Assembly (NCBI GenBank): GCA_030066755.1 | Contig: JASJAX010000038.1 | Span: 1 to 37,934 of the forward strand | DNA: 37,934 bases | Source of the DNA: Acidimicrobiia bacterium | GTDB lineage: Bacteria; Actinomycetota; Acidimicrobiia; Spongiisociales; UBA5794 | Reading direction: 5' to 3' | In this document: positions 1,529 through 31,681 of the stretch, one piece after another | Layout: every line of letters begins with the position of its first letter | How positions within the stretch are numbered: the stretch's first letter is position 1 | The notes under the pieces: generated by a model | Databases searched by the model: none | What the model saw: the letters and a program-made list of their open reading frames with translations, nothing else | What the model was told of the DNA's origin: nothing | Position numbers and translations under genes: made by a program

Positions 1529-1544
1529 AGTCGTCAGTCGTCAG
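1529..1544 (+). repeat. Heptamer repeat, AGTCGTC x2
   Basis: Two perfect AGTCGTC units plus AG directly follow the hairpin at the SDR stop. Same unit as the arrays at 13359, 18762 and (inverted) 19254. An inverted, less perfect copy lies at 1634-1651. Confidence 0.7.
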
Positions 1545-1633
1545 AACGTTGGCACACGAGGCCGACGACTATCAACCCTCGCGATGATCCCCAGAGGTCT
1601 GCCGCGTGCGATTCCGAGCGACGAACCACAGAT

Positions 1634-1651
1634 AACTGACGACGGACGACT
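1634..1651 (-). repeat. Inverted heptamer copy (GACGACG GACGACT)
   Basis: On the plus strand this reads ACTGACGACGGACGACT, the reverse orientation of the AGTCGTC units at 1529-1544. Its last unit forms the outer end of the 15-bp hairpin at 1645-1677. Confidence 0.55.
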
Positions 1652-1677
1652 GCCTTGGCTGTGCCAAGGCAGTCGTC
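1645..1677. repeat. Perfect 15-bp hairpin built on a heptamer unit
   Basis: GACGACTGCCTTGGC (1645-1659) and GCCAAGGCAGTCGTC (1663-1677) are perfectly complementary around the loop TGT. The outer 7 bp of each arm are the GACGACT/AGTCGTC heptamer. It sits 19 nt before tRNA-Gln. No T-tract follows on either side, so I record it as a palindromic repeat. It could act as a terminator for incoming transcription or as a REP-like element. Confidence 0.6.
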
Positions 1678-1696: not shown

Positions 1697-1768
1697 TCGG
1701 GGGTGGTGTAATTGGCAACACAGCAGGTTCTGGTCCTGTAATTGGGGGTTCGAGTCCTCCCCCCCGAG
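1697..1768 (+). tRNA. tRNA-Gln (anticodon CUG)
   Basis: Full cloverleaf. The acceptor TCGGGGG (1697-1703) pairs with CCCCCGA (1761-1767), giving the U1-A72 end typical of bacterial tRNA-Gln. The D stem is GTGT/ACAC. The anticodon stem GCAGG/CCTGT encloses loop TTCTGGT with CTG at 1730-1732. The T arm is GGGGG-TTCGAGT-CCTCC. The discriminator is G1768. CCA is not encoded, so it must be added after transcription. Confidence 0.95.
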
Positions 1769-2819: not shown

Positions 2820-5800
2820 ATGCCGGTCGCTGCCGCCAGTCGCAGGCCTCGACTACTCGCCGGCGGGCTCGTCGTCGTCCTCGTGTTTGCGCTCGTGGCA
2901 GCAATGTGCATGTCGCGTGATGACACCGAGCCGACCACCACCGTCGCCGCTCCCTCGAGTCCGGCGGTACCGACGGCCGTTCAAGCACTTGCGCCACCAG
3001 GACAGCCGTTGTCGGTGCGCCTGAGTGCGGGCAGTGCCGTGAACCTGGTGGATCCAGGGCCGATCACTCTGGTCGAAGGTGAACCGCTCGACGACGCAAC
3101 CGTGGCTGCGATCCTCGAACGGTTGCCAGAGTGGGTCATCCCGCAGGACGACCGCCTGGAGTTCAGACGTCCCGCAGAGACCCTGGCGCCGCCTCGGTCC
3201 GGCGCCACTATCGACGTGCCCTTCCCCGCTCCCGGCGGCGAGCCGACCCCGACCGTCGCGGCCGGACCGCTCGAGGTGCTTCGCTTCCAGCCCGAGGGGC
3301 GCGTGGCCGTCGCCCCCTACATCAGCATCACGTTCAACCAGCCGATGGTGCCGCTCGCCACCGTTGGACAGCTCGACTCCGAGAACGTACCGGTCGTTGT
3401 GACGCCTGACCTGCCGGGCCGATGGGAGTGGATCGGCACCCGGACGCTCCGCTTCGACCATGATTCGGAGCTGATCGACCGGTTGCCGATGGCCACCGTC
3501 TACCGGGTCGAGATCCCCGCAGGTACCACCTCCCAGACCGGCGGCGAGTTGGCCGAACCGGTGTCGTGGACGTTCAAGACACCACCGCCGCAGGTCGAGT
3601 CGTTCCAGCCATCACACGATTCACTGCCGCTCGAACCCGTCTTCCTGGTGGACTTCGACCAACGCATCGATCCGGTCGCCGTTCTCGAGACGATCACCAT
3701 CACTACGGGCACAGTGGGCGGCGAGGCTATGGCCATCCGCCTGGCGACCGAAGAGGAGATCGCCGCCGACGAACGAGTCCGTGCGCGCGTCGACGGGCTG
3801 CTCGCCGACCGGTGGCTGGCGTTCCGAGCGACGGCTGCCTTTGCGCCAGACACGCAGATCAACATCCAGATCGGCCCCGGCACGCCATCCGCCGAAGGCC
3901 CCCGCGCCACGGCAAACGAACGCTCCTTCACGGCTCGCACCTACGCGCCACTACGAGTGAGCGATTCGTCCTGCCGTGGACGCGATCGCTGCGGCCCCGG
4001 TGACTCGCTGTCGATCAGATTCAACAACGTCCTCGAACTCGAGGGGTTCGACGCCTCCATGGTCGCGGTTGAGCCGGAGCCGGCGGGGTTGACCGTCCAG
4101 GCGTGGCGCGACACGATCTCGATCAGTGGCGCAACCATCGGTGGCACCACGTACACCGCGACGATCGACCCCACCCTCACGGACACGCACGGGCAGACCT
4201 TGGGCGGCAACCGAACGGTTGAGTTCAGAATCAACGATGCCCGCCCGTCTCTCAACCAGTTCAGAGATGAACTCATCACGCTCGATCCGCTGGTCCCCGA
4301 GCCAACACTGGCCGTCGCCAGTGTGAACCACGACGAACTGCGGGTTCGCGTGTTCCGGGTGGATCCGAACGACTGGGGCTCGTATGTGGCGTACCTGGAC
4401 CGACGCTGGGATGACCAGCCGCCTCCAATCCCGTCGAGTTGGGCGCAGGTGAGCGACGAGATCGTCGACACCAACTCGAAGTCGAACGAGCTGACCGAGA
4501 CGGCTGTCGACCTCAGCGATGCGCTCGAAGGTGATGTCGGCCACGTCGTTGTGCTCGTCGAACCGGTAGGACACCTGGCGGGTTTGACCCGCGACAGCGA
4601 CGACTACTGGCGCAACCAACCGGCGATCGTGTGGGCTCAGTCGACCGTCATCGGGGCCGCAGCTATCAGCGACGCCGACGAGATCGTTGCGTGGGCGACC
4701 GACCTCCGGAGCGGTGAACCACTTCCCGATGTCGAAGTTGGGTTCACGGGATATCGTGCGACTGCCGTCACCAACGGGGATGGGCTCGCCCGGGTCGAGC
4801 TGCCGCAGGACGATTCGATCAGGACCGGGCTTCTCGTTGCCCGGCGCGGGGACGACCGTGCGCTCATCGACGCAAACTGGCGCAGCAACGTCAGGGACGA
4901 CGAAGCCGTGTGGTACGTCTTCGACGACCGAGGCGTGTACCGGCCGGACGAAACCGTGCACGTCAAGGGCTGGGTGCGGCGGATCAGGTGGAGCGACGAC
5001 GCACAGTTGGCCGCTGTCACGGGTGATGCCACCGTCGGCTACACGGCAGCCGACAGTTCCGGCAACGAGGTCGCATCCGGCACCGTCGACCTCAATGCCT
5101 TCGGGGGCTTCGACTTCGAGATCGACGTTCCCGCCAACGCCAATCTGGGTCAGGCCACGATCGATCTCACCTTGCAAGGTGTCGCAGGTCAGGACCGACG
5201 CCACTCGCACCGCCTCCAGATCCAGGAGTTCCGCCGCCCCGACTTCGAGGTCGCGGTCCGTCCCGAGTCCGCCGGTCCGTACCTCGTCGGCGAGCCGGCC
5301 ACCGCTGCGGTGACGGCGGAGTACTTCGCCGGCGGGCCGCTCACAGACGCCGAGGTTCGGTGGGTAGTCAGAACACAACCGGCGACCTACTCCCCGCCGG
5401 GATGGGACGACTTCACGTTCGGTGTTTGGGTCCCGTGGTGGTCACGAGGAGACAGCGGCGGAAGCCAGTTCCGGGGCGGTGCGGGATTCGACGGCATCCC
5501 GGGTCGTTTGGAGCCCGACGAAGTCAAGACATTCTCCGGACGCACCGACGCCGGCGGGACCCACTACCTCCAGATGGACTTCGATGGTGACGGAGAGGGA
5601 TTGCCCACCACCGTGTCGGCCGACGCCACGGTGTTCGACGTCAATCGCCAGGGCTGGTCGGATGGCACCGACCTGCTGGTCCATCCCGGTGAGTTCTATG
5701 TCGGTCTGAGCAGTCGACGGACCTTCGTCGATCGAGGCGAACCGCTCCTCGTTGAGGCCATCGCAACGGACATCGATGGAACCGCCGTCGCCGGACGCAC

Positions 5801-8800
5801 GGTGATCGTGAAGGCCGGACGGACGGAGTGGCTCCTCATGCAAGGGCGTTGGGAGCAGGTCCCGGTCGCCGTCGAGACGTGTGTCGTCACGTCCTCGGAT
5901 GAGCCCGTCGAGTGCGAGTTCTCGGCCGAGGTCGGCGGGAGGTACCAGATCATTGCGACCGTCGCCGACAACTCCGATCGCACGAGCAAGACCGAAATCA
6001 CGCGCTGGGTGGGCGGCGACAACCGCAGGCCGGAACGGAACGTCGTTCAGGAGGAAGTGACGCTGGTACCCGACAAGCGGGAGTACACCCCCGGTGACGA
6101 CGCCGAGATTCTCGTTGCCTCACCGTTTGGTCCGGCCGAGGGCTTGGTCACGATCAGCCGCAACGGCATCGTGTCGACCGAACGGTTCACCATCGACGAC
6201 ACCAGCACCGTGCTCTCTGTGCCCATCGAGGACGGCTACATCCCGAACGTGCACGTCCAGGTCGACCTCGTCGGCACGACGGCTCGCACCGCCGACAACG
6301 GGGATCCGCTCCCCGGTGCCCCGGAGCGCCCGGCGTTTGCGGTTGGAGCGCTCAAGCTGTCGATCCCGCCACTGAGCCGCACCCTCACCGTGACCGCGGT
6401 GCCGAGCACACCATTGGCGGAACCCGGGAGCGACACCCAGGTGGAGGTGACCGTCACCGATGCTTCAGGAAACCCCGTAGACAATGCCGAGCTGGCCGTG
6501 GTCGTGGCCGACGAAGCGGTGCTTGCGCTCGGCCGCTACGAGCTTCCCGATCCAATCAGCGTCTTCTACGCATCGATCAACCCCCGTATCAAGAGCCGCT
6601 ACCTGCGCAACTCCATCGAACTCGTCAACCCACAGCTACTCACCGGCGACGACTCGTTCGCAACGGCAACGACGGTTCTGGCCAGCGGTCAGTTCGACGA
6701 ATTCACCTCGAGCTTCGACGGCGGATTCAGCAGGCAATCCCTGTCTGCCGACGCAATACCAACAGCAGCGCAAGGGCGGGAGGAGTCTGCCGAGGCCGGC
6801 ATCATCGGTGTACGGACTCGCTTCGATGCGCTGGCCGTCTTCGCACCCGATGTCACGACCGGCGTCGACGGCACCGCCACCGTCGACGTTTCCCTGCCGG
6901 ACAGCCTCACCCGCTACCGGGTGATGGTGGTTGCCGTCGAGGGCACCGATCGATTCGGCACCGCCGAGTCCAACATCACGGCCCGCCTGCCGTTGATGAT
7001 TCGGCCGTCTGCGCCGCGCTTCCTGAACTTCGGGGACGCCTTCGAGGTGCCGGTGGTGATTCAGAACCAGACCGATACCGATCTCGAGGTCGATGCCGTC
7101 ATCCAGACGTCGAACCTGACCCTCACCGCCGGTGCCGGGCGACGGGTCACCGTTCCGGCCAACGATCGCATCGAGGTGCGTTTCCCTGCGGCCGCCGAGG
7201 ACGCCGGAACCGCACGTCTGCGGGTTGCCGCGATCGGCGGGACGTACGCCGACGCCGCCAGCGTCTCGCTCCCTGTCTACACGCCGGCGACCACCGAGGC
7301 CTTCGCGACCTACGGAGTGGTTGACGACGGTGTCATCGCTCAGCCGGTCCTGACTCCCGAAGCTGTCGTCCCCCAATTCGGCGGATTGGAAATCAACACC
7401 TCGTCGACGGCGCTCCAGGCGCTGACCGACGCCGTCATCTACTTGAACGACTACCGGTACGCCAGTTCCGACGGTTTGGCGTCGCGCATCCTCGCCATCG
7501 CCGCCCTACGGGACGTCCTCGACGCGTTCGACGCCGACGGGCTGCCCCCTGCCGCCGAGCTCGCAGCCCGAGTCGACGGGGACATCACTGCGCTCCTGGC
7601 GCTGCAGACCGATCGCGGTGGTTTCGCCATCTGGCGCAGCTCCAACCAGGACGTGCCGTACCACAGCATCCAGGCCACCCATGCGTTGGTCGAGGCGAAA
7701 GCGAACGGCTACGCCGTGCCGGCCGATCGGCTGGAGCGGGCGTTGAAGCACCTGCGGAACATCGAGAACCGTATTCCCAAGGACTACAGCCAGAGGATGA
7801 AGGACACGCTCAGTGCGTACGCCCTGTACGTTCGTGATCTCGCCGGCGAGCGGGACGCCACCAAGGCCGGTCAGCTGTATGCACGGGCGGGGGACACGCT
7901 CAGCCTCGACGCCGTCGCCCGGTTGTGGCCGGTGCTCAATGACCCCGACGCCGACGCCGAGATCGAGCGGTTGTTCACCAACCGGGCAACCGAAACCGCC
8001 GGTGCCGCCACCTTCACGACGGACTACGGCGAAGACGCCTACTTGATCCTCCACTCGAACCGCCGCACCGACGGGATCATCCTCGACGCGCTCATTGCCA
8101 AGACTCCCGACAGTGATCTCATCCCCAAGGTCGTCGCCGGACTCCTCGGCAACCAAACCCGCGGTCGCTGGCACAACGTCCAGGAAAACTCATTCATTCT
8201 GCTGGCGCTCAACGAGTACTTCGACACCTTCGAGTCCACGACACCCGACTTCGTTGCGAGGATCTGGCTGGGCGACCTGTACGCCGCAGAGCATGTCTTT
8301 ACGGGGCGAACCACCGACCGCGACCTCACATCGGTCCCGATGGAGGAGCTGATCGATCAGACCGCCGGGGGCGCTGCGGACATCGTCGTCGCCAAGGACG
8401 GCCCGGGACGGCTGTATTACCGCCTCGGTCTGCGCTACGCCCCGGACGACCTCGAGCTCGATCCTCTCGACCGCGGATTCGTGGTGCAACGCACCTACGA
8501 AGCCGTCGAGGATCCCGACGACGTCACTCGGGACCCCGACGGGGCCTGGCGTATCCGGCCCGGCGCTGAGGTCCGGGTGCGAGTGACGATGGTCGCCGAC
8601 AGCCGGAGAACCCATGTCGCGCTGATCGACCCGATGCCTGCCGGCTTCGAATCGCTCAACCCTGCGTTGGCGGTGACCGCTCCCCTCCCGCCGGCCGCTT
8701 TGCGCGAAGACGCCGCCCGTCTGACGTACTGGTGGTGGCGGTGGTTCGAGCATCAGAATCTCCGCGACGACCGAGCCGAGGCCTTTGCGACCCTCCTGCG

Positions 8801-8945
8801 GGCCGGCACGTACGAGTACACGTACGTCGCCCGTGCGACGACGCCGGGGACCTTCATCGTGCCCCCGACGACGGCTGAGGAGATCTATGCGCCGGAGACC
8901 TTCGGTCGATCGGGTTCCGACGTCGTGATCATCGAGTCGCGCTGA
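2820..8945 (+). CDS. Alpha-2-macroglobulin family protein without the thioester motif
   Basis: Giant envelope protein of 2041 residues, longer than E. coli YfhM (about 1650). Bacterial macroglobulins are thought to trap proteases in the envelope. The N-terminus has basic residues, then a hydrophobic stretch (12-29). The Cys at 30 follows Met29, which breaks the lipobox rule, so I read it as a signal anchor. Order: Thr/Pro linker, Ig-like MG1 modules (about 140-260), MG2 with VYRPDETVHVKG (about 706-717), core A2M domain with FAPDVTTGVDGTATVDVSLP (about 1338-1357), alpha-toroid thioester-type domain (about 1525-1800), and receptor-binding-like C-terminus. Where thioester homologues have YxYGCxEQ, this protein reads YRYASSDG (1545-1552): Ser1549, Asp1551 and Gly1552 replace Cys, Glu and Gln. 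Covalent capture is therefore not possible. No pbpC partner is nearby. AGGAAGGA lies 11 nt before the ATG. Confidence 0.92.
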   Translation: MPVAAASRRPRLLAGGLVVVLVFALVAAMCMSRDDTEPTTTVAAPSSPAVPTAVQALAPPGQPLSVRLSAGSAVNLVDPGPITLVEGEPLDDATVAAILERLPEWVIPQDDRLEFRRPAETLAPPRSGATIDVPFPAPGGEPTPTVAAGPLEVLRFQPEGRVAVAPYISITFNQPMVPLATVGQLDSENVPVVVTPDLPGRWEWIGTRTLRFDHDSELIDRLPMATVYRVEIPAGTTSQTGGELAEPVSWTFKTPPPQVESFQPSHDSLPLEPVFLVDFDQRIDPVAVLETITITTGTVGGEAMAIRLATEEEIAADERVRARVDGLLADRWLAFRATAAFAPDTQINIQIGPGTPSAEGPRATANERSFTARTYAPLRVSDSSCRGRDRCGPGDSLSIRFNNVLELEGFDASMVAVEPEPAGLTVQAWRDTISISGATIGGTTYTATIDPTLTDTHGQTLGGNRTVEFRINDARPSLNQFRDELITLDPLVPEPTLAVASVNHDELRVRVFRVDPNDWGSYVAYLDRRWDDQPPPIPSSWAQVSDEIVDTNSKSNELTETAVDLSDALEGDVGHVVVLVEPVGHLAGLTRDSDDYWRNQPAIVWAQSTVIGAAAISDADEIVAWATDLRSGEPLPDVEVGFTGYRATAVTNGDGLARVELPQDDSIRTGLLVARRGDDRALIDANWRSNVRDDEAVWYVFDDRGVYRPDETVHVKGWVRRIRWSDDAQLAAVTGDATVGYTAADSSGNEVASGTVDLNAFGGFDFEIDVPANANLGQATIDLTLQGVAGQDRRHSHRLQIQEFRRPDFEVAVRPESAGPYLVGEPATAAVTAEYFAGGPLTDAEVRWVVRTQPATYSPPGWDDFTFGVWVPWWSRGDSGGSQFRGGAGFDGIPGRLEPDEVKTFSGRTDAGGTHYLQMDFDGDGEGLPTTVSADATVFDVNRQGWSDGTDLLVHPGEFYVGLSSRRTFVDRGEPLLVEAIATDIDGTAVAGRTVIVKAGRTEWLLMQGRWEQVPVAVETCVVTSSDEPVECEFSAEVGGRYQIIATVADNSDRTSKTEITRWVGGDNRRPERNVVQEEVTLVPDKREYTPGDDAEILVASPFGPAEGLVTISRNGIVSTERFTIDDTSTVLSVPIEDGYIPNVHVQVDLVGTTARTADNGDPLPGAPERPAFAVGALKLSIPPLSRTLTVTAVPSTPLAEPGSDTQVEVTVTDASGNPVDNAELAVVVADEAVLALGRYELPDPISVFYASINPRIKSRYLRNSIELVNPQLLTGDDSFATATTVLASGQFDEFTSSFDGGFSRQSLSADAIPTAAQGREESAEAGIIGVRTRFDALAVFAPDVTTGVDGTATVDVSLPDSLTRYRVMVVAVEGTDRFGTAESNITARLPLMIRPSAPRFLNFGDAFEVPVVIQNQTDTDLEVDAVIQTSNLTLTAGAGRRVTVPANDRIEVRFPAAAEDAGTARLRVAAIGGTYADAASVSLPVYTPATTEAFATYGVVDDGVIAQPVLTPEAVVPQFGGLEINTSSTALQALTDAVIYLNDYRYASSDGLASRILAIAALRDVLDAFDADGLPPAAELAARVDGDITALLALQTDRGGFAIWRSSNQDVPYHSIQATHALVEAKANGYAVPADRLERALKHLRNIENRIPKDYSQRMKDTLSAYALYVRDLAGERDATKAGQLYARAGDTLSLDAVARLWPVLNDPDADAEIERLFTNRATETAGAATFTTDYGEDAYLILHSNRRTDGIILDALIAKTPDSDLIPKVVAGLLGNQTRGRWHNVQENSFILLALNEYFDTFESTTPDFVARIWLGDLYAAEHVFTGRTTDRDLTSVPMEELIDQTAGGAADIVVAKDGPGRLYYRLGLRYAPDDLELDPLDRGFVVQRTYEAVEDPDDVTRDPDGAWRIRPGAEVRVRVTMVADSRRTHVALIDPMPAGFESLNPALAVTAPLPPAALREDAARLTYWWWRWFEHQNLRDDRAEAFATLLRAGTYEYTYVARATTPGTFIVPPTTAEEIYAPETFGRSGSDVVIIESR

Positions 8946-9336: not shown

Positions 9337-9371
9337 GTACTGAGTACTGAGTACCGAGTACTGAGTACCGA
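9337..9371. repeat. Heptamer array GTACTGA x5
   Basis: Five head-to-tail 7-nt units: GTACTGA, GTACTGA, GTACCGA, GTACTGA, GTACCGA. The array fills the short convergent gap and stops 2 nt before the gltX stop codon (9374-9376). The unit differs from AGTCGTC but has the same period and gene-border placement. Confidence 0.9.
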
Positions 9372-9373
9372 CC

Positions 9374-10843
9374 TCACATTGCCTCAGCGAGTTTGGCCGA
9401 CGCTGCGCTGAGGCGCTCGAGCGTGCGGTCCCGGCCGAGGGCAGCGATCGACTCGAACAGCGGGGGCGAGATCGACGAACCGGTGACGGCCACGCGCAGC
9501 GGCTGCAGGCCCTTCCGTGCGGAGAGCTCGTGAGTCTCGAGCATGGCTCGCAGCGCCCCCTCAACCGCCTCGATCGACCACTCAGAGAGTTGATCCAATG
9601 CCTCGGAGGCACCCGCCACGGCAACGTCGGCGCCGTCTTTGCGCATCACCTTGTCCCACGACGTCTCGTCGTACGTGATGTCACCGAAGAGGAACCGGAC
9701 TTGTTCGGGGATCTCGGTGAGCACCTTCGCCCGCTCCTGAACGTGCGGCAGGATCTCCTCGAGCGTGCGCACGTCATCGCCTGCGAGCTCGCGACCGAGG
9801 TCCGCTTCGACGAGCGCCCGCACCCGACCCACAAAACCATCGCCACTCAGCTCGCGGATGTAGACCCCGTTCATCCACTCGAGCTTCGTGACGTCGAAGA
9901 CGGCCGGGTTCTTCGACACGTCGGTCAGTTCGAACCGATCGGCCATGTCGGCGAGCGACACGATCTCCTCGTCATCACCAGGAGACCAACTCAAGATTGC
10001 GAGGTAGTTGCGCAACGCCTCGGCGAGGAATCCTGCATCCCGATAGGAGTTGATCGACGTGTGCCCGTGGCGTTTCGACAGCTTCGCTCCATCCGGTCCG
10101 CGCAGCAGGGGTAGATGCGCGTAGGTCGCTCGCGCCGACCCCATGGCCTCGGTCAACAGGATGTGCTTCGGAGTCGACGACAGGAGATCCTCGCCACGAA
10201 CCACGTGACTGATGTCGAAGTCGACATCGTCCACCGTGCTGGCGAGGTGGTACGTCGGCGACCCATCGGACCGCAGGATCACGAAGTCGTCGACCTGAAC
10301 GTGCTCGAACCGCATGTCGCCGCGTACGAGGTCTGCGAACTCCGTGACGCCGGGTCGTTCGACGGCGAAGCGAATCGGCGCGCGCTCCCCTGCGGCGATG
10401 CGGCGGGCGGCCTCGTCGGCATCGACCCGGAAGCGACCGTCGTAGGCGGGTGGCAGCCCCGCCGCTTGAGCCTCTTTGCGGAAGGTGTCCAACTGCTCCG
10501 GCGACGCGAAGGAGTAGTAGGCACGACCGTCGGCGAGCAGCTGGTGCGCGACCGCTTGGTATCGCGCGAACCGCTCACTCTGGTGATACGTCGGTTGCGG
10601 CCCGCCGACCTCGATTCCTTCGTCCCAATCGAGCCCGAGCCAGCGCATGCTCTCGATGATGTCGGCGGCGAACTCGTCGGTGCTGCGCTCCCGATCGGTG
10701 TCGTCGCTCCGCAGGATGAACGTGCCGCCATACCTCCGGGCGAAGAGCCAGTTGTAGAGGGCGGTCCGGCCGCCGCCGACGTGGAGGTACCCCGTCGGGG
10801 ACGGCGCAAACCGAACTCGAATCGGTCGCGAGGCGTCGATCAT
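9374..10843 (-). CDS. gltX: Glutamyl-tRNA synthetase
   Basis: Class I synthetase charging tRNA-Glu with glutamate in the cytoplasm; 489 residues, normal length. The N-terminus FAPSPTGYLHVGGGRTALYN holds the HIGH-type motif as HVGG (21-24). The KMSKS motif is KLSKR (254-258). The region around 110-120, YYSFASPEQ, lacks the Cys residues of zinc-binding GluRS. The C-terminal half is the helical anticodon-binding region. Because gatCAB is also in this window, the enzyme may be non-discriminating and also charge tRNA-Gln with Glu; this is inference. Its ATG overlaps the stop of the FAH-family gene by 4 nt (ATGA), so the two are translationally coupled. M. tuberculosis has the same order (Rv2993c-gltS). 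Confidence 0.97.
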   Translation of the reverse strand: MIDASRPIRVRFAPSPTGYLHVGGGRTALYNWLFARRYGGTFILRSDDTDRERSTDEFAADIIESMRWLGLDWDEGIEVGGPQPTYHQSERFARYQAVAHQLLADGRAYYSFASPEQLDTFRKEAQAAGLPPAYDGRFRVDADEAARRIAAGERAPIRFAVERPGVTEFADLVRGDMRFEHVQVDDFVILRSDGSPTYHLASTVDDVDFDISHVVRGEDLLSSTPKHILLTEAMGSARATYAHLPLLRGPDGAKLSKRHGHTSINSYRDAGFLAEALRNYLAILSWSPGDDEEIVSLADMADRFELTDVSKNPAVFDVTKLEWMNGVYIRELSGDGFVGRVRALVEADLGRELAGDDVRTLEEILPHVQERAKVLTEIPEQVRFLFGDITYDETSWDKVMRKDGADVAVAGASEALDQLSEWSIEAVEGALRAMLETHELSARKGLQPLRVAVTGSSISPPLFESIAALGRDRTLERLSAASAKLAEAM

Positions 10844-12163: not shown

Positions 12164-12217
12164 GGGGGTCACCTCGCGGTGGTCGTGCGGGTTCACGATA
12201 GACGGCTTCCACGGCCA

Positions 12218-12245
12218 CCAGACTCCAGCCCCCAGCCTCCAGCAA
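12218..12245. repeat. Degenerate heptamer array CCAGNNN x4
   Basis: CCAGACT, CCAGCCC, CCAGCCT, CCAGCAA in tandem with an exact 7-nt period, in the 232-nt gap between ilvE and the hypothetical gene. The first four bases of each unit are invariant. Confidence 0.6.
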
Positions 12246-12283
12246 GACTTCGCGCGTCCGAGACTGGTGTTCGACCGTGTTCG

Positions 12284-12372
12284 GACTGGCGACTTGACCT
12301 CAACGCAGTGATTCCACGGCTGCCGCGTCGAGCACGTCTGAGAACAACACTTCGGGCTGGCGACTGGCGACT
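12284..12372. repeat. Scattered GACTGGC heptamers
   Basis: GACTGGC-GACTTGA at 12284-12297, and CTGGC-GACTGGC-GACTCGG around 12357-12377. The same GACTGGC unit recurs at 19224-19250. Period again 7 nt. The copies are short and imperfect, so this is the weakest family. Confidence 0.4.
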
Positions 12373-12373
12373 C

Positions 12374-12394
12374 GGCGAGGGCGCAGCCCTCGCC
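12374..12394 (-). terminator. Hairpin downstream of ilvE
   Basis: GGCGAGGGC (12374-12382), loop GCA, GCCCTCGCC (12386-12394): a perfect 9-bp stem starting 1 nt after the ilvE stop codon (12396-12398). No U-tract. Confidence 0.5.
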
Positions 12395-12395
12395 G

Positions 12396-13307
12396 CTACA
12401 CGTATTCCAGCCACTCCGGGTGGGTCGTGAGCTTGCCGGTCACGGCATCCTGGAACAGCTCCTGAGCACGTTTCGTGATGGGCCCGGGATGGCCGGGACC
12501 GACCGGATTGTCGTCGACCTCGCGGATCGGTGTGACCTCGGCCGCGGTTCCCGTCATGAACAGCTCGTCGCAGTAGAACAAGTCGGATCGGGTGAGGGTC
12601 TTCTCGACGACCTCGTAGCCGTCCTCCTGGAGCAGCGTCGCTACTGCGTCGCGCGTGATTCCATCGAGACAGCCGACGGCGATCGGGGGCGTGTAGACCA
12701 CCCCGTCGTCGACGAGGAAGATGTTCTCGCCGCTGCCTTCGGAGATCACACCCTCGTCGTTGAGCATGATCGCCTCGTCGTAGCCGGCGCGGACTGCCTC
12801 CATCTTGGCGAGGATCGAGTTGATATAGGTCCCCGTCGCTTTGGCATTGGGAAAAGCCGATCCCGAGAACCGACGCCACGACGACACCCGAGTGCGGATC
12901 CCGTTGCGAACACCTTCTTCGCCGAGATAGGCACCCCACCGCCAAGTGACGATCGTCGAACGCACGAGGGCGCCCGTCGGGTTGAGTCCGATGGCGCCGA
13001 GCTCGCGGAAGACGAGCGGGCGGATGTACCCGGACTCGAGCTCATTGGCCCGCAGCAGCTCCAGCGTGGCCTTCGTCAGGTCCTGTACCGACCAATCCAG
13101 CTCCATGTGATACGCCTTCGCCGAGCGATGGAGCCGTTCCATGTGCTCGGTGAGACGGAATACCGCAGTGCCGTTGGCCGCCTCGTACGCCCGGATGCCT
13201 TCGAAGACACCAGTCCCGTAGTGCAGCGCGTGGGTGAGGACATGCACCTTGGCGTCCTCCCACGGCACCATCTCTCCGTCGAGCCAGATGTAGGTCGTGG
13301 GTTCCAT
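12396..13307 (-). CDS. ilvE: Branched-chain amino acid aminotransferase
   Basis: PLP fold-type IV transaminase, 303 residues, converting 2-ketoisovalerate, 2-ketoisocaproate and 3-methyl-2-oxopentanoate to valine, leucine and isoleucine with glutamate as donor. The start MEPTTYIWLDGEMVPWEDAK and HYGTGVFEGIRAY are typical of the short bacterial IlvE class. Lys156 in AFPNAKATGTYINS is the Schiff-base lysine. SEGSGENIFLV and DGITRDAV bind the phosphate. The C-terminus has FMTGTAAEVTPI, the usual family block. A D-amino-acid aminotransferase or aminodeoxychorismate lyase is less likely given these motifs. No ribosome site is visible before ATG 13307; a weak CAAACT box 6 nt upstream suggests a leaderless start. 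The gene lies after the heptamer cluster 13359-13522. Confidence 0.94.
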   Translation of the reverse strand: MEPTTYIWLDGEMVPWEDAKVHVLTHALHYGTGVFEGIRAYEAANGTAVFRLTEHMERLHRSAKAYHMELDWSVQDLTKATLELLRANELESGYIRPLVFRELGAIGLNPTGALVRSTIVTWRWGAYLGEEGVRNGIRTRVSSWRRFSGSAFPNAKATGTYINSILAKMEAVRAGYDEAIMLNDEGVISEGSGENIFLVDDGVVYTPPIAVGCLDGITRDAVATLLQEDGYEVVEKTLTRSDLFYCDELFMTGTAAEVTPIREVDDNPVGPGHPGPITKRAQELFQDAVTGKLTTHPEWLEYV

Positions 13308-13358
13308 GGCGTCAGTTTGCCACGGGATCTCGAGCCATGCACCGGCATTGCGAAGTCC

Positions 13359-13389
13359 AGTCGTCAGTCGTCAGTCATCAGTCGTCAGT
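13359..13389 (+). repeat. Heptamer element, four AGTCGTC units (third altered)
   Basis: AGTCGTC, AGTCGTC, AGTCATC, AGTCGTC, AGT. Read on the minus strand the units are GACGACT, GATGACT, GACGACT, GACGACT: the second is altered, as in the arrays at 18762 and 19254. It lies upstream of ilvE. Confidence 0.9.
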
Positions 13390-13432
13390 ATTGGCGCCGC
13401 CCGGCCCGGACGCGACTGGACGTCGGCACGGA

Positions 13433-13522
13433 ACTGACGACTCAGGCCTCAGCTCCCATCAGATCACGGCTCCCGCGTTCCATTGCGCTCGTGCGGTGAG
13501 TTCCGACTGATGACTGACGACT
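13433..13522 (-). repeat. Two inverted partial copies of the AGTCGTC element
   Basis: ACTGACGACT at 13433-13442 and CCGACT-GATGACT-GACGACT at 13503-13522 face the array at 13359-13389. The second copy again has GATGACT as its altered unit and stops 2 nt before the S9 peptidase stop codon (13525-13527). The 217-nt gap between ilvE and the peptidase holds no gene. Confidence 0.65.
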
Positions 13523-13524
13523 CG

Positions 13525-15453
13525 CTACCGCAGGTAGCGGTTGTGCCATTCCAGGATGGCTTCGAACCGTTCGACGCGGTGTTTGGGGGTGCCGCTTCTC
13601 GAGAGCTCGTGGCCTTCACCGGCCGGGAATCGCAAGAACTCGGTGGCGACGCCGGACTGCAGCAGGCGAACGAAGAGCTGCTCGGCTTGCTCCACCGGGG
13701 TGCGGAGGTCGCTCTCGGAGTGGATGATCAGGGTCGGGGTTGTGATCGCCCCGGCATACGCGAGCGGGCTGGAGGCCCATGCCAGATCCGGGTCGCCCCC
13801 GACGTCGTCACTCAGATACGTGCGGGTGAACCAGGGGCCGATGTCCGACGTTCCGTGGAAGGACGTCCATGAGTACAGCCCTCGTTCGGCGACGGCGGAG
13901 CGGAACCGTTGGTCGAGACTGAGCAGACGCACCGTCGACAGTCCGCCGTACGAACCGCCCATGACACCGAGCCGTTCACCGTCGAGTCGTGCGAACTGCT
14001 CCAACGCCGTGGTGACTGCTCCGGCGAAGTCAGCCATGTCAGGGGGCATTGCCTCGTGCCAGCGTCCGACGACGCCGCCGACATGATCGGCGCCGTATCC
14101 GCTCGATCCGCGCGGGTTGATCGCAACGACCCCGTACCCGGCAGCCGCATAGACCTGGAACTCGTCGAAGAAGCCGTAGCCGTACTGCGTGGCCGGGCCA
14201 CCGTGGATGTTCAACAGGAGTGGGACCCGTTCCTCGCCGGCCGGGAGGTAGACCCATCCTTCGATCGGGACACCGTCGCTGTCGAACTCGAAACGTTCCG
14301 GCTCGACCAATGAACTCTCGGCGAGGAAGGTGTCGTTGAGGTTCGTCAGGCGACGCTCGACGCCTTCCTCCCACCACCACAGGTCGCCCGGGTCGGTCGG
14401 AGTCGTAGCGGTGAACGCAAATGCCCGACCGTCCGAGGTGGGATCGATGCCGGTGATCTGTCGGTCTCCGCCCAGGACGTCTTCGGTATCCCTGCCGTCG
14501 AGCAGCCGGATCACGCGCACCCGCCCGGAGTCCTCGAGGGTGGACAGAGCATTTCCGTCGGCGAGCCACTGTGGTCCGCCAGGACTGAGCGGTGGTGCGA
14601 ATGTCTCGAGGTTGCGATCCAGGTCCGTGAACCGCGCCTCCTCGGCGCCCGGCGTGGTCAAGCGGTGGAGCTTCCGGACGGTGACCATGTTCCACCGATC
14701 GGTAATACCGATGGCGTAGAGGTTGCCGGCAGCGTCGTAGCTCGGGTGGCTCCACAGCCCAACATCGGAGCGAGCCGTTGCCGGTCCTCCATCACTGGGC
14801 ACAGTCCAGACCTGGACACCGGGATCGAGCCCGCGACCCTCGTGGCGCGGACTGAGGAACGCGAGCTCCGTGCCGTCGGGATGCCACGCCAGGGTCAGCT
14901 CGTCGTCGTCGCCGGGTGTGAGGCACACCGGCTCCGCTTCGCCTTCCGGATCCACGAGATAGAGATGTCGGCGCCGGTCGTGCAACCAGCCCATGCCGTC
15001 GAAACGAAACGGGAGGCCAACGATTCGTCGCGGCCGTCGGTCACGTTCGTCGTCGTCCAGGTCGGCGAGGGAGTCGATCCACGTCGTCGCGACGGCCGCC
15101 AGGCGCGTGCCGTCCGGCGACCACTCGGCTTGAGACACCCCAAGGGCGAACTCACTGACCACGCGTGCTTCCCCGCCGCTCATGGGAAGTACCGCGATCT
15201 GAGGCGGCGACCCGGGCGTCGTCGTACCACGAAGGAACGCAAGGGAGGCGCCGTCCGGCGACCAGCGTGGTGCAGTGTCGCGTGGGCCGGCGGTGAGGGG
15301 CCGAGCACCCGAACCGTCCCAGAGCCAGATCCTGCTGACGTAGCGATCCTCTCCCAGGTCCATCTGGGTGACGACGAACGCAACTTGAACGCCGTCCGGG
15401 GCAAGTCGGGGATCGGACGGTCGGCGGTAGTCGCCGAGTTGGTCGGGTCGCAT
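13525..15453 (-). CDS. S9 family serine peptidase (prolyl oligopeptidase/acylaminoacyl-peptidase type)
   Basis: Predicted cytoplasmic oligopeptidase of 642 residues. The N-terminal two thirds is a beta-propeller built from TolB/WD-like blades, seen as repeated WSPDG and WHPDG motifs (for example RWSPDGASLAFLRG, EWSPDGTRLAAVA). The C-terminal third (about 400-642) is an alpha/beta hydrolase. Catalytic triad: Ser501 in VMGGSYGG, Asp582 in HSESDLRTPVEQ and His615 in GEGHELSR. NIHGGP is the oxyanion-hole segment. There is no signal peptide. Substrates in this family are short peptides, often N-blocked or prolyl; which ones cannot be told here. The ATG at 15453 has GGAG about 8 nt upstream. It is divergent from pgpA. 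Confidence 0.93.
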   Translation of the reverse strand: MRPDQLGDYRRPSDPRLAPDGVQVAFVVTQMDLGEDRYVSRIWLWDGSGARPLTAGPRDTAPRWSPDGASLAFLRGTTTPGSPPQIAVLPMSGGEARVVSEFALGVSQAEWSPDGTRLAAVATTWIDSLADLDDDERDRRPRRIVGLPFRFDGMGWLHDRRRHLYLVDPEGEAEPVCLTPGDDDELTLAWHPDGTELAFLSPRHEGRGLDPGVQVWTVPSDGGPATARSDVGLWSHPSYDAAGNLYAIGITDRWNMVTVRKLHRLTTPGAEEARFTDLDRNLETFAPPLSPGGPQWLADGNALSTLEDSGRVRVIRLLDGRDTEDVLGGDRQITGIDPTSDGRAFAFTATTPTDPGDLWWWEEGVERRLTNLNDTFLAESSLVEPERFEFDSDGVPIEGWVYLPAGEERVPLLLNIHGGPATQYGYGFFDEFQVYAAAGYGVVAINPRGSSGYGADHVGGVVGRWHEAMPPDMADFAGAVTTALEQFARLDGERLGVMGGSYGGLSTVRLLSLDQRFRSAVAERGLYSWTSFHGTSDIGPWFTRTYLSDDVGGDPDLAWASSPLAYAGAITTPTLIIHSESDLRTPVEQAEQLFVRLLQSGVATEFLRFPAGEGHELSRSGTPKHRVERFEAILEWHNRYLR

Positions 15454-18377: not shown

Positions 18378-18743
18378 TCAGAGCTGCTGCGCGAACAGGA
18401 ACCAGGCAACGACGGCCGCAAGGGCGAAGAACACCACGGCTTTCATCGCCGCCTTGGTGATACCCCAGACGAATCCGGCGACGGCGAGCACACCAATGAT
18501 GGCGAGCACGACGGCCAGGGTCGGGTTCGATGCGACCGCCTCGATGAATCCCTCCGGCACGAAGTCGGGGAACTGATCGACGAGGGTGTCCCGAGCACTC
18601 TCGGACAGGGAATCGAGGACATCTTCGGGGATCTTCTCGATCACACCGTCCTTCAGGTCCTGCACGACGTCCGACGGCAACTCGTCGACGACCTCGGGAG
18701 GCAGGTCCTCGACCTCTTGGAGCAAGAAGGCTGTCCGGTTCAT
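18378..18743 (-). CDS. Membrane protein with N-terminal octad repeats
   Basis: 121 residues; no family recognised. The N-terminal half (about 12-62) is made of 8-residue units: DLPPEVVD, ELPSDVVQ, DLKDGVIE, KIPEDVLD, SLSESARD, TLVDQFPD. Each has a hydrophobic residue, often Pro, an acidic residue, then V-V/L-I. This predicts a regular stack of short helical turns, strongly acidic. The C-terminal half has two membrane segments (about 75-95 and 98-118). A leaderless start is likely: TAGCCT ends 6 nt before the ATG at 18743. Divergent from the DUF983 gene, with a heptamer element between them. A scaffold or membrane-tethered binding surface is conceivable, but there is no direct clue. Confidence 0.75.
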   Translation of the reverse strand: MNRTAFLLQEVEDLPPEVVDELPSDVVQDLKDGVIEKIPEDVLDSLSESARDTLVDQFPDFVPEGFIEAVASNPTLAVVLAIIGVLAVAGFVWGITKAAMKAVVFFALAAVVAWFLFAQQL

Positions 18744-18761: not shown

Positions 18762-18791
18762 AGTCGTCAGTCGTCAGTCTTCAGTCGTCAG
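18762..18791 (+). repeat. Heptamer element, four AGTCGTC units (third altered), in a divergent promoter
   Basis: AGTCGTC, AGTCGTC, AGTCTTC, AGTCGTC, AG. It lies between the two TAGCCT boxes of divergent genes. Its reverse complement matches 19254-19281 at 26 of 28 positions, with the altered unit in the same place. Confidence 0.92.
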
Positions 18792-18815
18792 AGCGATCGG
18801 TCCCCATGTGCGGTA

Positions 18816-18821
18816 TAGCCT
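18816..18821 (+). promoter_or_regulatory. -10 box (TAGCCT) for the DUF983 gene
   Basis: TAGCCT ends 6 nt before the ATG at 18828; no Shine-Dalgarno site is present, suggesting a leaderless mRNA. Confidence 0.5.
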
Positions 18822-18827
18822 GCGGGC

Positions 18828-19229
18828 ATGGCAACCGACCGTCCCACGTGGACGCAACCTGGCATCGGAACTGCGCTGGCACGTGCGTTTCGGCGGCGGT
18901 GTCCGCGCTGTGGCGGCGGTGACGTCTTCGACACCTGGATTCGACTGAAGGACGATTGTCCGACGTGTGCTTTGCACTTCGAGCGTGTCGACGGCTACTG
19001 GCTGGGCTCCATGGTCATCAACCTCGCCGTCACGCAGGTCCTGCTCCTGGGAACCCTCATCGGCTTGTTGGTCGCAACCTGGCCGGATGTTCCGTGGACT
19101 GCCGTCCTCATGGCGGTTGTGGCCATCGCCGTCGTCATTCCGCTCCTGATGCACCCACTCAGCCGCCTCCTCTGGGTAGCCGGCGAACGCCACTTCCACC
19201 TGCGCGCCCACCCCGACGCCACCGACTGA
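18828..19229 (+). CDS. DUF983 family zinc-ribbon membrane protein
   Basis: 133 residues. The N-terminal part holds two paired cysteine motifs, CPRCGGGDVF (about 25-34) and CPTCALHFERVDGYW (about 44-58), which form the zinc-ribbon signature of DUF983. Two membrane segments follow (about 62-83 and 88-107), then a short His-rich cytoplasmic or outer tail. The function of DUF983 is unknown. Heptamer elements in opposite orientation flank the gene on both sides (18762-18791 and 19254-19283). The stop codon lies inside the first downstream heptamer block. Confidence 0.88.
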   Translation: MATDRPTWTQPGIGTALARAFRRRCPRCGGGDVFDTWIRLKDDCPTCALHFERVDGYWLGSMVINLAVTQVLLLGTLIGLLVATWPDVPWTAVLMAVVAIAVVIPLLMHPLSRLLWVAGERHFHLRAHPDATD

Positions 19230-19250
19230 CGACTGGCAAATGGCGACTGG
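19224..19250. repeat. Degenerate GACTGGC heptamer block
   Basis: GACTGAC, GACTGGC, AAATGGC, GACTGG(A): four 7-nt units, the first overlapping the DUF983 stop codon. They resemble the GACTGGC units near 12284 and 12357 and run straight into the GACGACT array. Confidence 0.55.
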
Positions 19251-19253
19251 ACC

Positions 19254-19283
19254 GACGACTGACAACTGACGACTGACGACTGA
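19254..19283 (-). repeat. Heptamer element, four GACGACT units (second altered), upstream of ppc
   Basis: GACGACT, GACAACT, GACGACT, GACGACT, GA: the inverted counterpart of 18762-18791. It ends 1 nt before the -10 box of ppc, so it occupies the upstream promoter region. Confidence 0.92.
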
Positions 19284-31019: not shown

Positions 31020-31643
31020 ATGCTCCCTCTCCCCCGCCAGCGTCTCGGTCGCCGGTTCACCCAACTCCTCATCGGGCTCGTGGTATTCGGCTTCGGTATC
31101 GCCCTGATGGTCGTTTCCGATCTCGGGCTCTCGCCGTGGCAGACCCTCCACCAGGGAGTGGCGGAGCGGACCGGCTTGGCCATCGGCACCGTGACGATCC
31201 TCACCGGCATCGTGGTCCTGCTTCTCTGGATCCCGCTGGGTGAGCGCATCGGCCTGGGGACGATCCTCAACGTCGCCATCATCGGCAACGCGCTCAATCG
31301 CAGCCTCGACCTCCTTCCCGAAGAGTTCGCCAGCCTTCCCATACGCTGGCTCGCCATGCTCAGCGGCGTGTGCCTGATCGGCCTCGGAACGAGCCTCTAC
31401 ATCGGCGTGAGGATGGGCTCCGGCCCCCGCGACGGCGTTATGACCGGCTTGGCGAGGCGCGGCATCAACATCGGCGTCGTCCGTACCGGTATCGAGGTGA
31501 CGGTGCTCGCGATCGGCTGGTCGCTCGGAGGCACGGTCGGCTTTGGGACGATCGCCTTCGCCGCAGGCATCGGCCCAATCATCGCTTACTTGCTCCCGAA
31601 ACTGACGGTGATGCCGATCGTTCCGGTAGCGAGTAGCGAGTAG
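31020..31643 (+). CDS. YczE/YitT-type integral membrane protein
   Basis: 207 residues with about five membrane segments. The family hallmark is the glycine-rich run SLYIGVRMGSGPRDGVMTGL (about 126-145) and VSDLGLSPWQTLHQG near the first TM. These match the YczE/YyaS/YitT group, whose function is unknown; some members act in regulation of antibiotic synthesis or transport. The last codons, GTAGCGAGTAGCGAG then TAG, are part of the heptamer array at 31626-31653, so the C-terminal VASSE is repeat-encoded. Leaderless start at 31020 assumed. Confidence 0.85.
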   Translation: MLPLPRQRLGRRFTQLLIGLVVFGFGIALMVVSDLGLSPWQTLHQGVAERTGLAIGTVTILTGIVVLLLWIPLGERIGLGTILNVAIIGNALNRSLDLLPEEFASLPIRWLAMLSGVCLIGLGTSLYIGVRMGSGPRDGVMTGLARRGINIGVVRTGIEVTVLAIGWSLGGTVGFGTIAFAAGIGPIIAYLLPKLTVMPIVPVASSE

Positions 31644-31653
31644 CGAGTAGCGA
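31626..31653. repeat. Heptamer array GTAGCGA x4, overlapping a stop codon
   Basis: Four perfect GTAGCGA units. The array begins inside the YczE-type gene, supplies its last five codons and TAG stop (31641-31643), and continues into the 38-nt convergent gap before dapE. Confidence 0.92.
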
Positions 31654-31681
31654 GAGCCTGCCGCAGGCGGTCGACTCCGGA

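What the first reader, a model, noticed from the sequence alone, without database searches (positions are those of the whole stretch)
18762..19283. A dispersed 30-nt element of four 7-nt units, present in inverted pairs
Seen directly: the arrays at 13359-13389, 18762-18791 and 19254-19283 each consist of four AGTCGTC/GACGACT units, and in all three the same unit position is altered (GATGACT, GAAGACT, GACAACT). Reverse complementing 18762-18789 gives 26 of 28 matches with 19254-19281. Independent slippage would not keep the odd unit in one place, so this looks like a copied element. Each cluster has a partner in opposite orientation: 1529/1634, 13359/13433 and 13503, 18762/19254. The last pair brackets the whole DUF983 gene. 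Inference: a transposable or RNA-hairpin-forming repeat.
Basis: partly seen in the sequence, partly recalled or inferred. Interest (0 to 1): 0.62.

Follow-up and report, generated by a model that had tools for sequence, protein, structure and literature searches.

The report
Polar seven-base repeats at gene edges
This uncultured actinobacterium carries hundreds of short runs of a seven-base repeat at the edges of its genes, arranged by the same placement rules reported for unrelated seven-base repeats in Xanthomonas and Nostoc but without the quadruplex-forming sequence those were explained by, so the rules need another cause.

Summary
In 1.12 Mb of this Acidimicrobiia MAG there are 177 tandem arrays of period 7, against 0-8 for every other period tested. 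About 97% lie outside called genes. Units vary (GTCGTCA, GTCGCCA, GTCCCAA, GTAGCCA, GTACTCA and others). Three rules hold. Arrays are polar: the 5' end of the GTC strand faces the nearest gene (GTCGTCA: 38 of 45, p=3e-6). Neighbouring arrays converge (15 of 18 pairs), usually with different units in the two arms, so hairpin pairing is not what is conserved. Arrays often start 1 nt after the base of a stem-loop behind a stop codon. Convergent arms often flank a previously unrecognised 74-nt module private to this genome. No RAYT or reverse transcriptase was found. The anatomy matches Xanthomonas GGGAATC repeats (PMC4692102), yet only 8 of 175 arrays could form G-quadruplexes. New variant of a known kind; copying enzyme and function unproven.

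The parts
1529..1544 (+). GTCGTCA array (left arm), 17 nt after the stop of a short-chain dehydrogenase gene (799-1512)
1599..1652 (+). degenerate core of the 74-nt module (CTGCCGCGTG) and right arm (ACTGACGACGGACGACT)
9337..9371 (+). GTACTGA-family array holding the exact 26-mer AGTACTGAGTACCGAGTACTGAGTAC (9343-9368), just before the 3' end of the minus-strand glutamyl/glutaminyl-tRNA synthetase-like gene (9374-10843)
12214..12243 (+). left arm, GCCTCCA-type heptamers
12280..12364 (+). 74-nt module, full copy
   Evidence: 54 bits, E 8e-16
12357..12378 (-). right arm, CTGGCGA heptamers; read from the opposing gene it is AGTCGCCAGTCGCCAG starting directly after the stem
12373..12395 (-). GC-rich stem-loop behind the stop codon of the minus-strand class IV aminotransferase gene (12396-13307)
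13358..13389 (+). GTCGTCA array (left arm) of a complete element
13430..13513 (+). 74-nt module, diverged copy; starts with ACTGACGACT
   Evidence: 38.5 bits, E 6e-11
13504..13522 (-). right arm; abuts the stop codon of the minus-strand S9 peptidase gene (13525-15453)
18762..18791 (+). GTCGTCA array in the divergent gap between 18378-18743(-) and the DUF983 gene (18828-19229 +)
19223..19283 (-). GACGACT array; overlaps the DUF983 stop codon and ends 14 nt before the PEP carboxylase start codon (19298)
31626..31654 (+). GTAGCGA array, four perfect units, overlapping the stop codon of ORF 31020-31643

Best explanation
These are polar heptanucleotide arrays of the bacterial long-simple-sequence-repeat class. 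Shown: arrays sit at gene edges, point away from the nearest gene, often begin right after a stop codon or the base of a stem-loop, and come in convergent pairs; a 26-30-nt GTACTGA array and a 74-nt module are each dispersed in many copies. Inferred: an array is first placed at a gene border by a copying or templated process that acts in trans and recognises, or is tolerated only at, gene ends. Replication slippage and point mutation then remodel it in place, changing the unit and the length while the polarity stays. Convergent pairs are the two edges of an occupied gap and often enclose module copies. The copying enzyme is unknown and there is no evidence for a host function.
For: Period-7 excess 177 against 0-8. 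About 97% outside called genes, 5 of 180 inside. Polarity: GTCGTCA 38/45, other GTC-type 46/73, GTACTGA 32/44; contigs chosen without regard to repeats 34/42. Convergent pairs 15/18. Array start exactly 1 nt after a stem base in 14 of 37 GTC-type and 7 of 18 GTAC cases. 41 identical 26-mers with the odd unit fixed in the middle 12:1:0. 38 copies of the 74-nt module in 1.12 Mb, none inside genes, with only chance-level matches in 80 relatives. Arrays mixing two unit types in phase argue for remodelling in place. The GTAC4 pattern is in 24 of 138 genomes of the same order and 0 of 257 others in the class.
Against: No mobility enzyme of the two classes tested, although the MAG is only 92% complete. 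No same-genus genome is held, so no empty orthologous site could be shown. Target-site duplications were not tested. Most GTC-type arrays vary in length and unit, which slippage alone would also give. The A/B label of the GTAC family was set partly from the same data.
Confidence: 0.52

Rival explanations
1. The arrays are functional 3'-end signals (transcript-end, RNA-stability, or protein-binding sites such as a regulator reading GTAC every 7 nt) kept by selection next to terminator-like stem-loops.
For: Exact spacing to stem bases. 54% of GTAC arrays have a strong hairpin on the gene side against 12% in shuffles, with CCGAAGG/CCTTCGG loops enriched. Stem-array adjacency is also seen in other families of the order, L306 and L325. 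Sense-strand polarity after stop codons.
Against: Arrays also sit near gene starts and in divergent gaps (26 of 163). Units differ widely between neighbouring genes. Most relatives lack them. GTC-type flanks show little extra structure. Rehm et al. found no regulatory role in Xanthomonas/Nostoc (PMC4692102).
Confidence: 0.23
2. Pure neutral polymerase slippage with a 7-nt preference, surviving only between genes.
For: The general excess of heptamers among long bacterial repeats is attributed to slippage in the literature (summarised in PMC4679880 and PMC4692102). Unit drift and in-array homogenisation.
Against: Slippage does not predict polarity relative to genes, convergent pairing, 41 identical 26-mers with one fixed odd unit, or a sharp length mode at 30 nt in the GTAC family.
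Confidence: 0.15
3. A classical transposable element with inverted terminal repeats (MITE or REPIN type), heptamer arms as ends and the 74-nt module as interior.
For: Convergent arms enclosing modules; module copies all intergenic.
Against: No Y1 transposase and no RT. Arms of one element are often different heptamers, so they are not true inverted repeats. Most arrays are single. Module number varies from 1 to 3 in tandem.
Confidence: 0.1

Closest known systems
Xanthomonas GGGAATC and Nostoc GGGGA(C/T)T heptameric repeats (Rehm et al. 2015, PMC4692102)
   Same: Heptamer period; mostly intergenic (89-93% in Xanthomonas); commonest number of units four; convergent pairs (70 and 75 cases in the two Xanthomonas genomes); nearer to the ORF on the 5' side (means 28 and 160 nt there, 41 and 134 nt here for GTCGTCA); overlap with stop codons; no link to mobile elements.
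   Different: Those repeats form G-quadruplexes and were discussed in that light; only 8 of 175 arrays here could. Different units, phylum Actinomycetota, many unit families in one genome, an extra 74-nt module, and one 26-mer in 41 exact copies.
Beggiatoaceae TAACTGA direct repeats (MacGregor 2015, PMC4679880)
   Same: Intergenic heptamer arrays, few units each, some overlapping stop codons, patchy taxonomic spread.
   Different: One unit only, mostly just upstream of start codons; here many units, and next to gene ends as much as or more than starts.
Cyanobacterial STRR heptanucleotides (Calothrix; cited in PMC4692102)
   Same: Dispersed tandem heptamers of several unit sequences in one genome.
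   Different: Different units and phylum; polarity and pairing there are not known to me.
REP/REPIN elements with RAYT transposases
   Same: Short intergenic repeats of about 20-40 nt, paired in inverted orientation.
   Different: No RAYT gene, no conserved palindrome per repeat, variable length by units of 7.

Membership tests
Heptanucleotide long simple sequence repeats (LSSR) | period 7 strongly over-represented against other periods | tested here: met
   177 against 0-8 arrays
Heptanucleotide long simple sequence repeats (LSSR) | mainly intergenic | tested here: met
   5 of 180 arrays inside called genes, about 90% of the DNA coding
Xanthomonas/Nostoc-type polar heptamer repeats | nearest ORF on the 5' side; convergent pairs; commonest number of units four | tested here: met
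   38/45 (GTCGTCA), 34/42 in unselected contigs; 15/18 pairs; mode 30 nt overall, driven by GTAC; mild mode 4 in GTCGTCA
Xanthomonas/Nostoc-type polar heptamer repeats | G-tracts able to form G-quadruplexes | tested here: not met
   8 of 175 arrays have four GGG or CCC tracts
REP/REPIN-RAYT | Y1 (RAYT) transposase in the genome | tested here: not met
   PF01797: no match in own genome, 5 of 14 control genomes positive
REP/REPIN-RAYT | conserved palindromic hairpin in each repeat | tested here: not met
   GTC-type arrays are simple tandem repeats; paired arms usually of different units
Retroelement-spread repeats (e.g. group IIC introns at terminators) | reverse transcriptase in the genome | tested here: not met
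   PF00078: none in own genome, controls positive; MAG 92% complete
MITE / IS-derived element | target-site duplications and empty sites in relatives | not tested
   no same-genus genome held; duplications not examined
Structured RNA family (74-nt module) | match to Rfam, or a conserved fold with covariation | tested here: not met
   no Rfam match other than two tRNAs in the window and one chance hit; RNAalifold predicts 0 pairs on 37 copies

The most novel reading that the evidence does not exclude
A dedicated, still unknown bacterial process writes polar runs of about four 7-nt units at gene borders, at the base of terminator-like stem-loops or at stop codons. It works with many unit sequences and in unrelated phyla (Acidimicrobiia, Xanthomonas, Nostoc), so the shared anatomy comes from the writing mechanism and not from quadruplex structure or transposons.
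Probability: 0.17. Interest if true: 0.8.

Novelty: new variant of a known kind. Interest (0 to 1): 0.5.

Why it matters
Heptamers are the commonest long simple repeat in many bacterial genomes, and why seven has stayed open. This genome shows the anatomy reported for quadruplex-forming Xanthomonas and Nostoc repeats (polarity towards the nearest gene, convergent pairs, a preference for four units) in arrays that nearly all lack G-tracts. That removes quadruplex formation as a general cause. It points to a shared process, at the level of DNA or transcript ends, that can be tested by comparing congeneric strains. The 74-nt module and the 26-mer give clean markers for following spread.

Tried and rejected
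Linked REP-type transposase and reverse transcriptase: absent. Structured RNA for the module: no Rfam match, no consensus fold. Module in relatives: only weak partial matches at chance level. Module in viral contigs: one 17-nt match with no element around it. Fixed odd unit in GACGACT arrays: rejected genome-wide. Pair bracketing DUF983 as a gene-carrying element: arms lie in two different gaps, and only one other pair has similar spacing. Orthologous-site comparison: nearest held genomes are other genera, with DUF983 at 56% identity or less and PEP carboxylase at 70% or less, too far for intergenic alignment. Ascertainment: contigs of the first and third batches were chosen because they hold GACGACT, so polarity was repeated on the unselected batch C1-C20 (34 of 42).

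Full report
The window is contig C137 of a 3.79-Mb, 211-contig, 92%-complete genome. The nearest named PEP carboxylases (70% identity) are from uncultured Acidimicrobiia.

They belong to a genome-wide population. GACTGACGACTGACGACT (up to 1 mismatch) occurs 182 times, its reversed control 0 times. In 1.12 Mb of sampled contigs, period 7 gives 177 arrays, while periods 4-19 other than 7 give 0-8. At least a dozen units occur, related by a GTC/GTA...CA skeleton: GTCGTCA, GTCGCCA, GTCTCAG, GTCTCAA, GTCCCAA, GTAGCCA, GTAGCGA, GCCACCA, GTACTCA. Only 5 of 180 lie inside called genes, although about 90% of the DNA is coding.

Rule 1, polarity. Written so that the unit reads GTC..., the 5' end faces the nearer gene in 38 of 45 GTCGTCA arrays (mean distance 41 against 134 nt, p=3e-6), 46 of 73 other GTC-type arrays, and 32 of 44 GTAC arrays after choosing their direction. 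On contigs picked without regard to repeats it is 34 of 42. Rule 2, pairing. Neighbouring GTC-type arrays within 600 nt are convergent 15 times, divergent once and same-direction twice (p=3e-7). Because the two arms are usually different heptamers, base pairing between them is not the conserved property. Rule 3, placement. Of 37 GTC-type arrays behind a stem-loop that follows a stop codon, 14 start exactly 1 nt after the stem base; for GTAC arrays it is 7 of 18. 22 GTC-type arrays start within 7 nt of, or over, a sense stop codon. The same stem-array junction is seen in other families of the order (L306, L325).

The odd-unit argument. It does hold for the GTACTGA family: AGTACTGAGTACCGAGTACTGAGTAC occurs 41 times exactly and 143 times with up to 2 mismatches, with 0 controls. 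The odd unit is in the middle 12:1:0 and 28 of 46 arrays are 29-32 nt. The background-corrected length distribution of all arrays has a sharp mode at 30 nt, mainly from this family. These arrays have a strong hairpin on their gene side in 54% of cases, against 12% in shuffles.

A larger element. Between convergent arms lies a module of 74 positions (GGGACTGGCGACTCGACCTCAGC...GGCTGCCGCGTCC...CGGCGTT), in 38 copies, all intergenic, often tandem at 72-75 nt. The window has copies at 12280-12364 and 13430-13513 and a degenerate one near 1599. A sequence-only model finds 60 copies in this genome and only weak matches (best E 5e-4) in 80 relatives. It matches no Rfam family and has no consensus fold.

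Distribution. The pattern GTACnnAGTACnnAGTACnnAGTAC is in 24 of 138 genomes of the same order and in none of 257 other genomes of the class. Relatives use other units (GTACTTG, GTACCAA, GTCGCAA). No Y1 transposase or reverse transcriptase is encoded in this genome.

Comparison. Rehm et al. 2015 (PMC4692102) describe Xanthomonas and Nostoc heptamers with the same polarity (28 against 160 nt), convergent pairs, stop-codon overlap and, in Xanthomonas, commonest number of four units; they note the match of four units to G-quadruplex formation and found no link to mobile elements. MacGregor 2015 (PMC4679880) describes TAACTGA repeats and summarises the earlier finding that heptamers dominate long repeats. 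Here only 8 of 175 arrays could form a quadruplex, so that property cannot explain the shared anatomy.

Judgement. Shown: period, polarity, pairing, placement, the dispersed 26-mer, the dispersed module, the order-level patchiness. Inferred: placement by a trans-acting copying or templated step at gene ends, followed by slippage in place. Unknown: the enzyme and any host function.

Noticed in passing
G000 intergenic regions, e.g. C127:1230-1290, C82:1290-1330, C104:40-80, C148 near 9130: A second dispersed intergenic motif, about GATCGACGAGTGCT...CCCCCCTACCCCC, often next to heptamer arrays.
   Followed up: partly
L328 (viral contig IMGVR_UViG_3300035125_000073) 3676-3719, 6060-6103, 11583-11642: Viral contig with three heptamer arrays, two of them GTACTGA type and one holding 23 nt of the 26-mer, in short gaps between ORFs: possible phage of the same order.
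   Followed up: partly
L179 15160-15240 (JAUIIM010000001.1, Acidimicrobiia Co_bin.261): A GTAC array of 31 nt, a 28-nt spacer, then a shorter convergent GTAC array abutting a CCGAAGG-loop hairpin: the same layout in a distant genome.
   Followed up: partly
G018 (L267, L270), G015 (L275, L276, L093): Relatives with dense period-7 arrays of other units (GTCGCAA, GTCATGA, GACTGAT, GGCTGAC).
   Followed up: partly
window 1697-1768 and 1816-1888: Two tRNA genes beside the degenerate element at 1529-1652.
   Followed up: no
window 2820-8945 (+): Single ORF of 2041 aa, not identified here.
   Followed up: no
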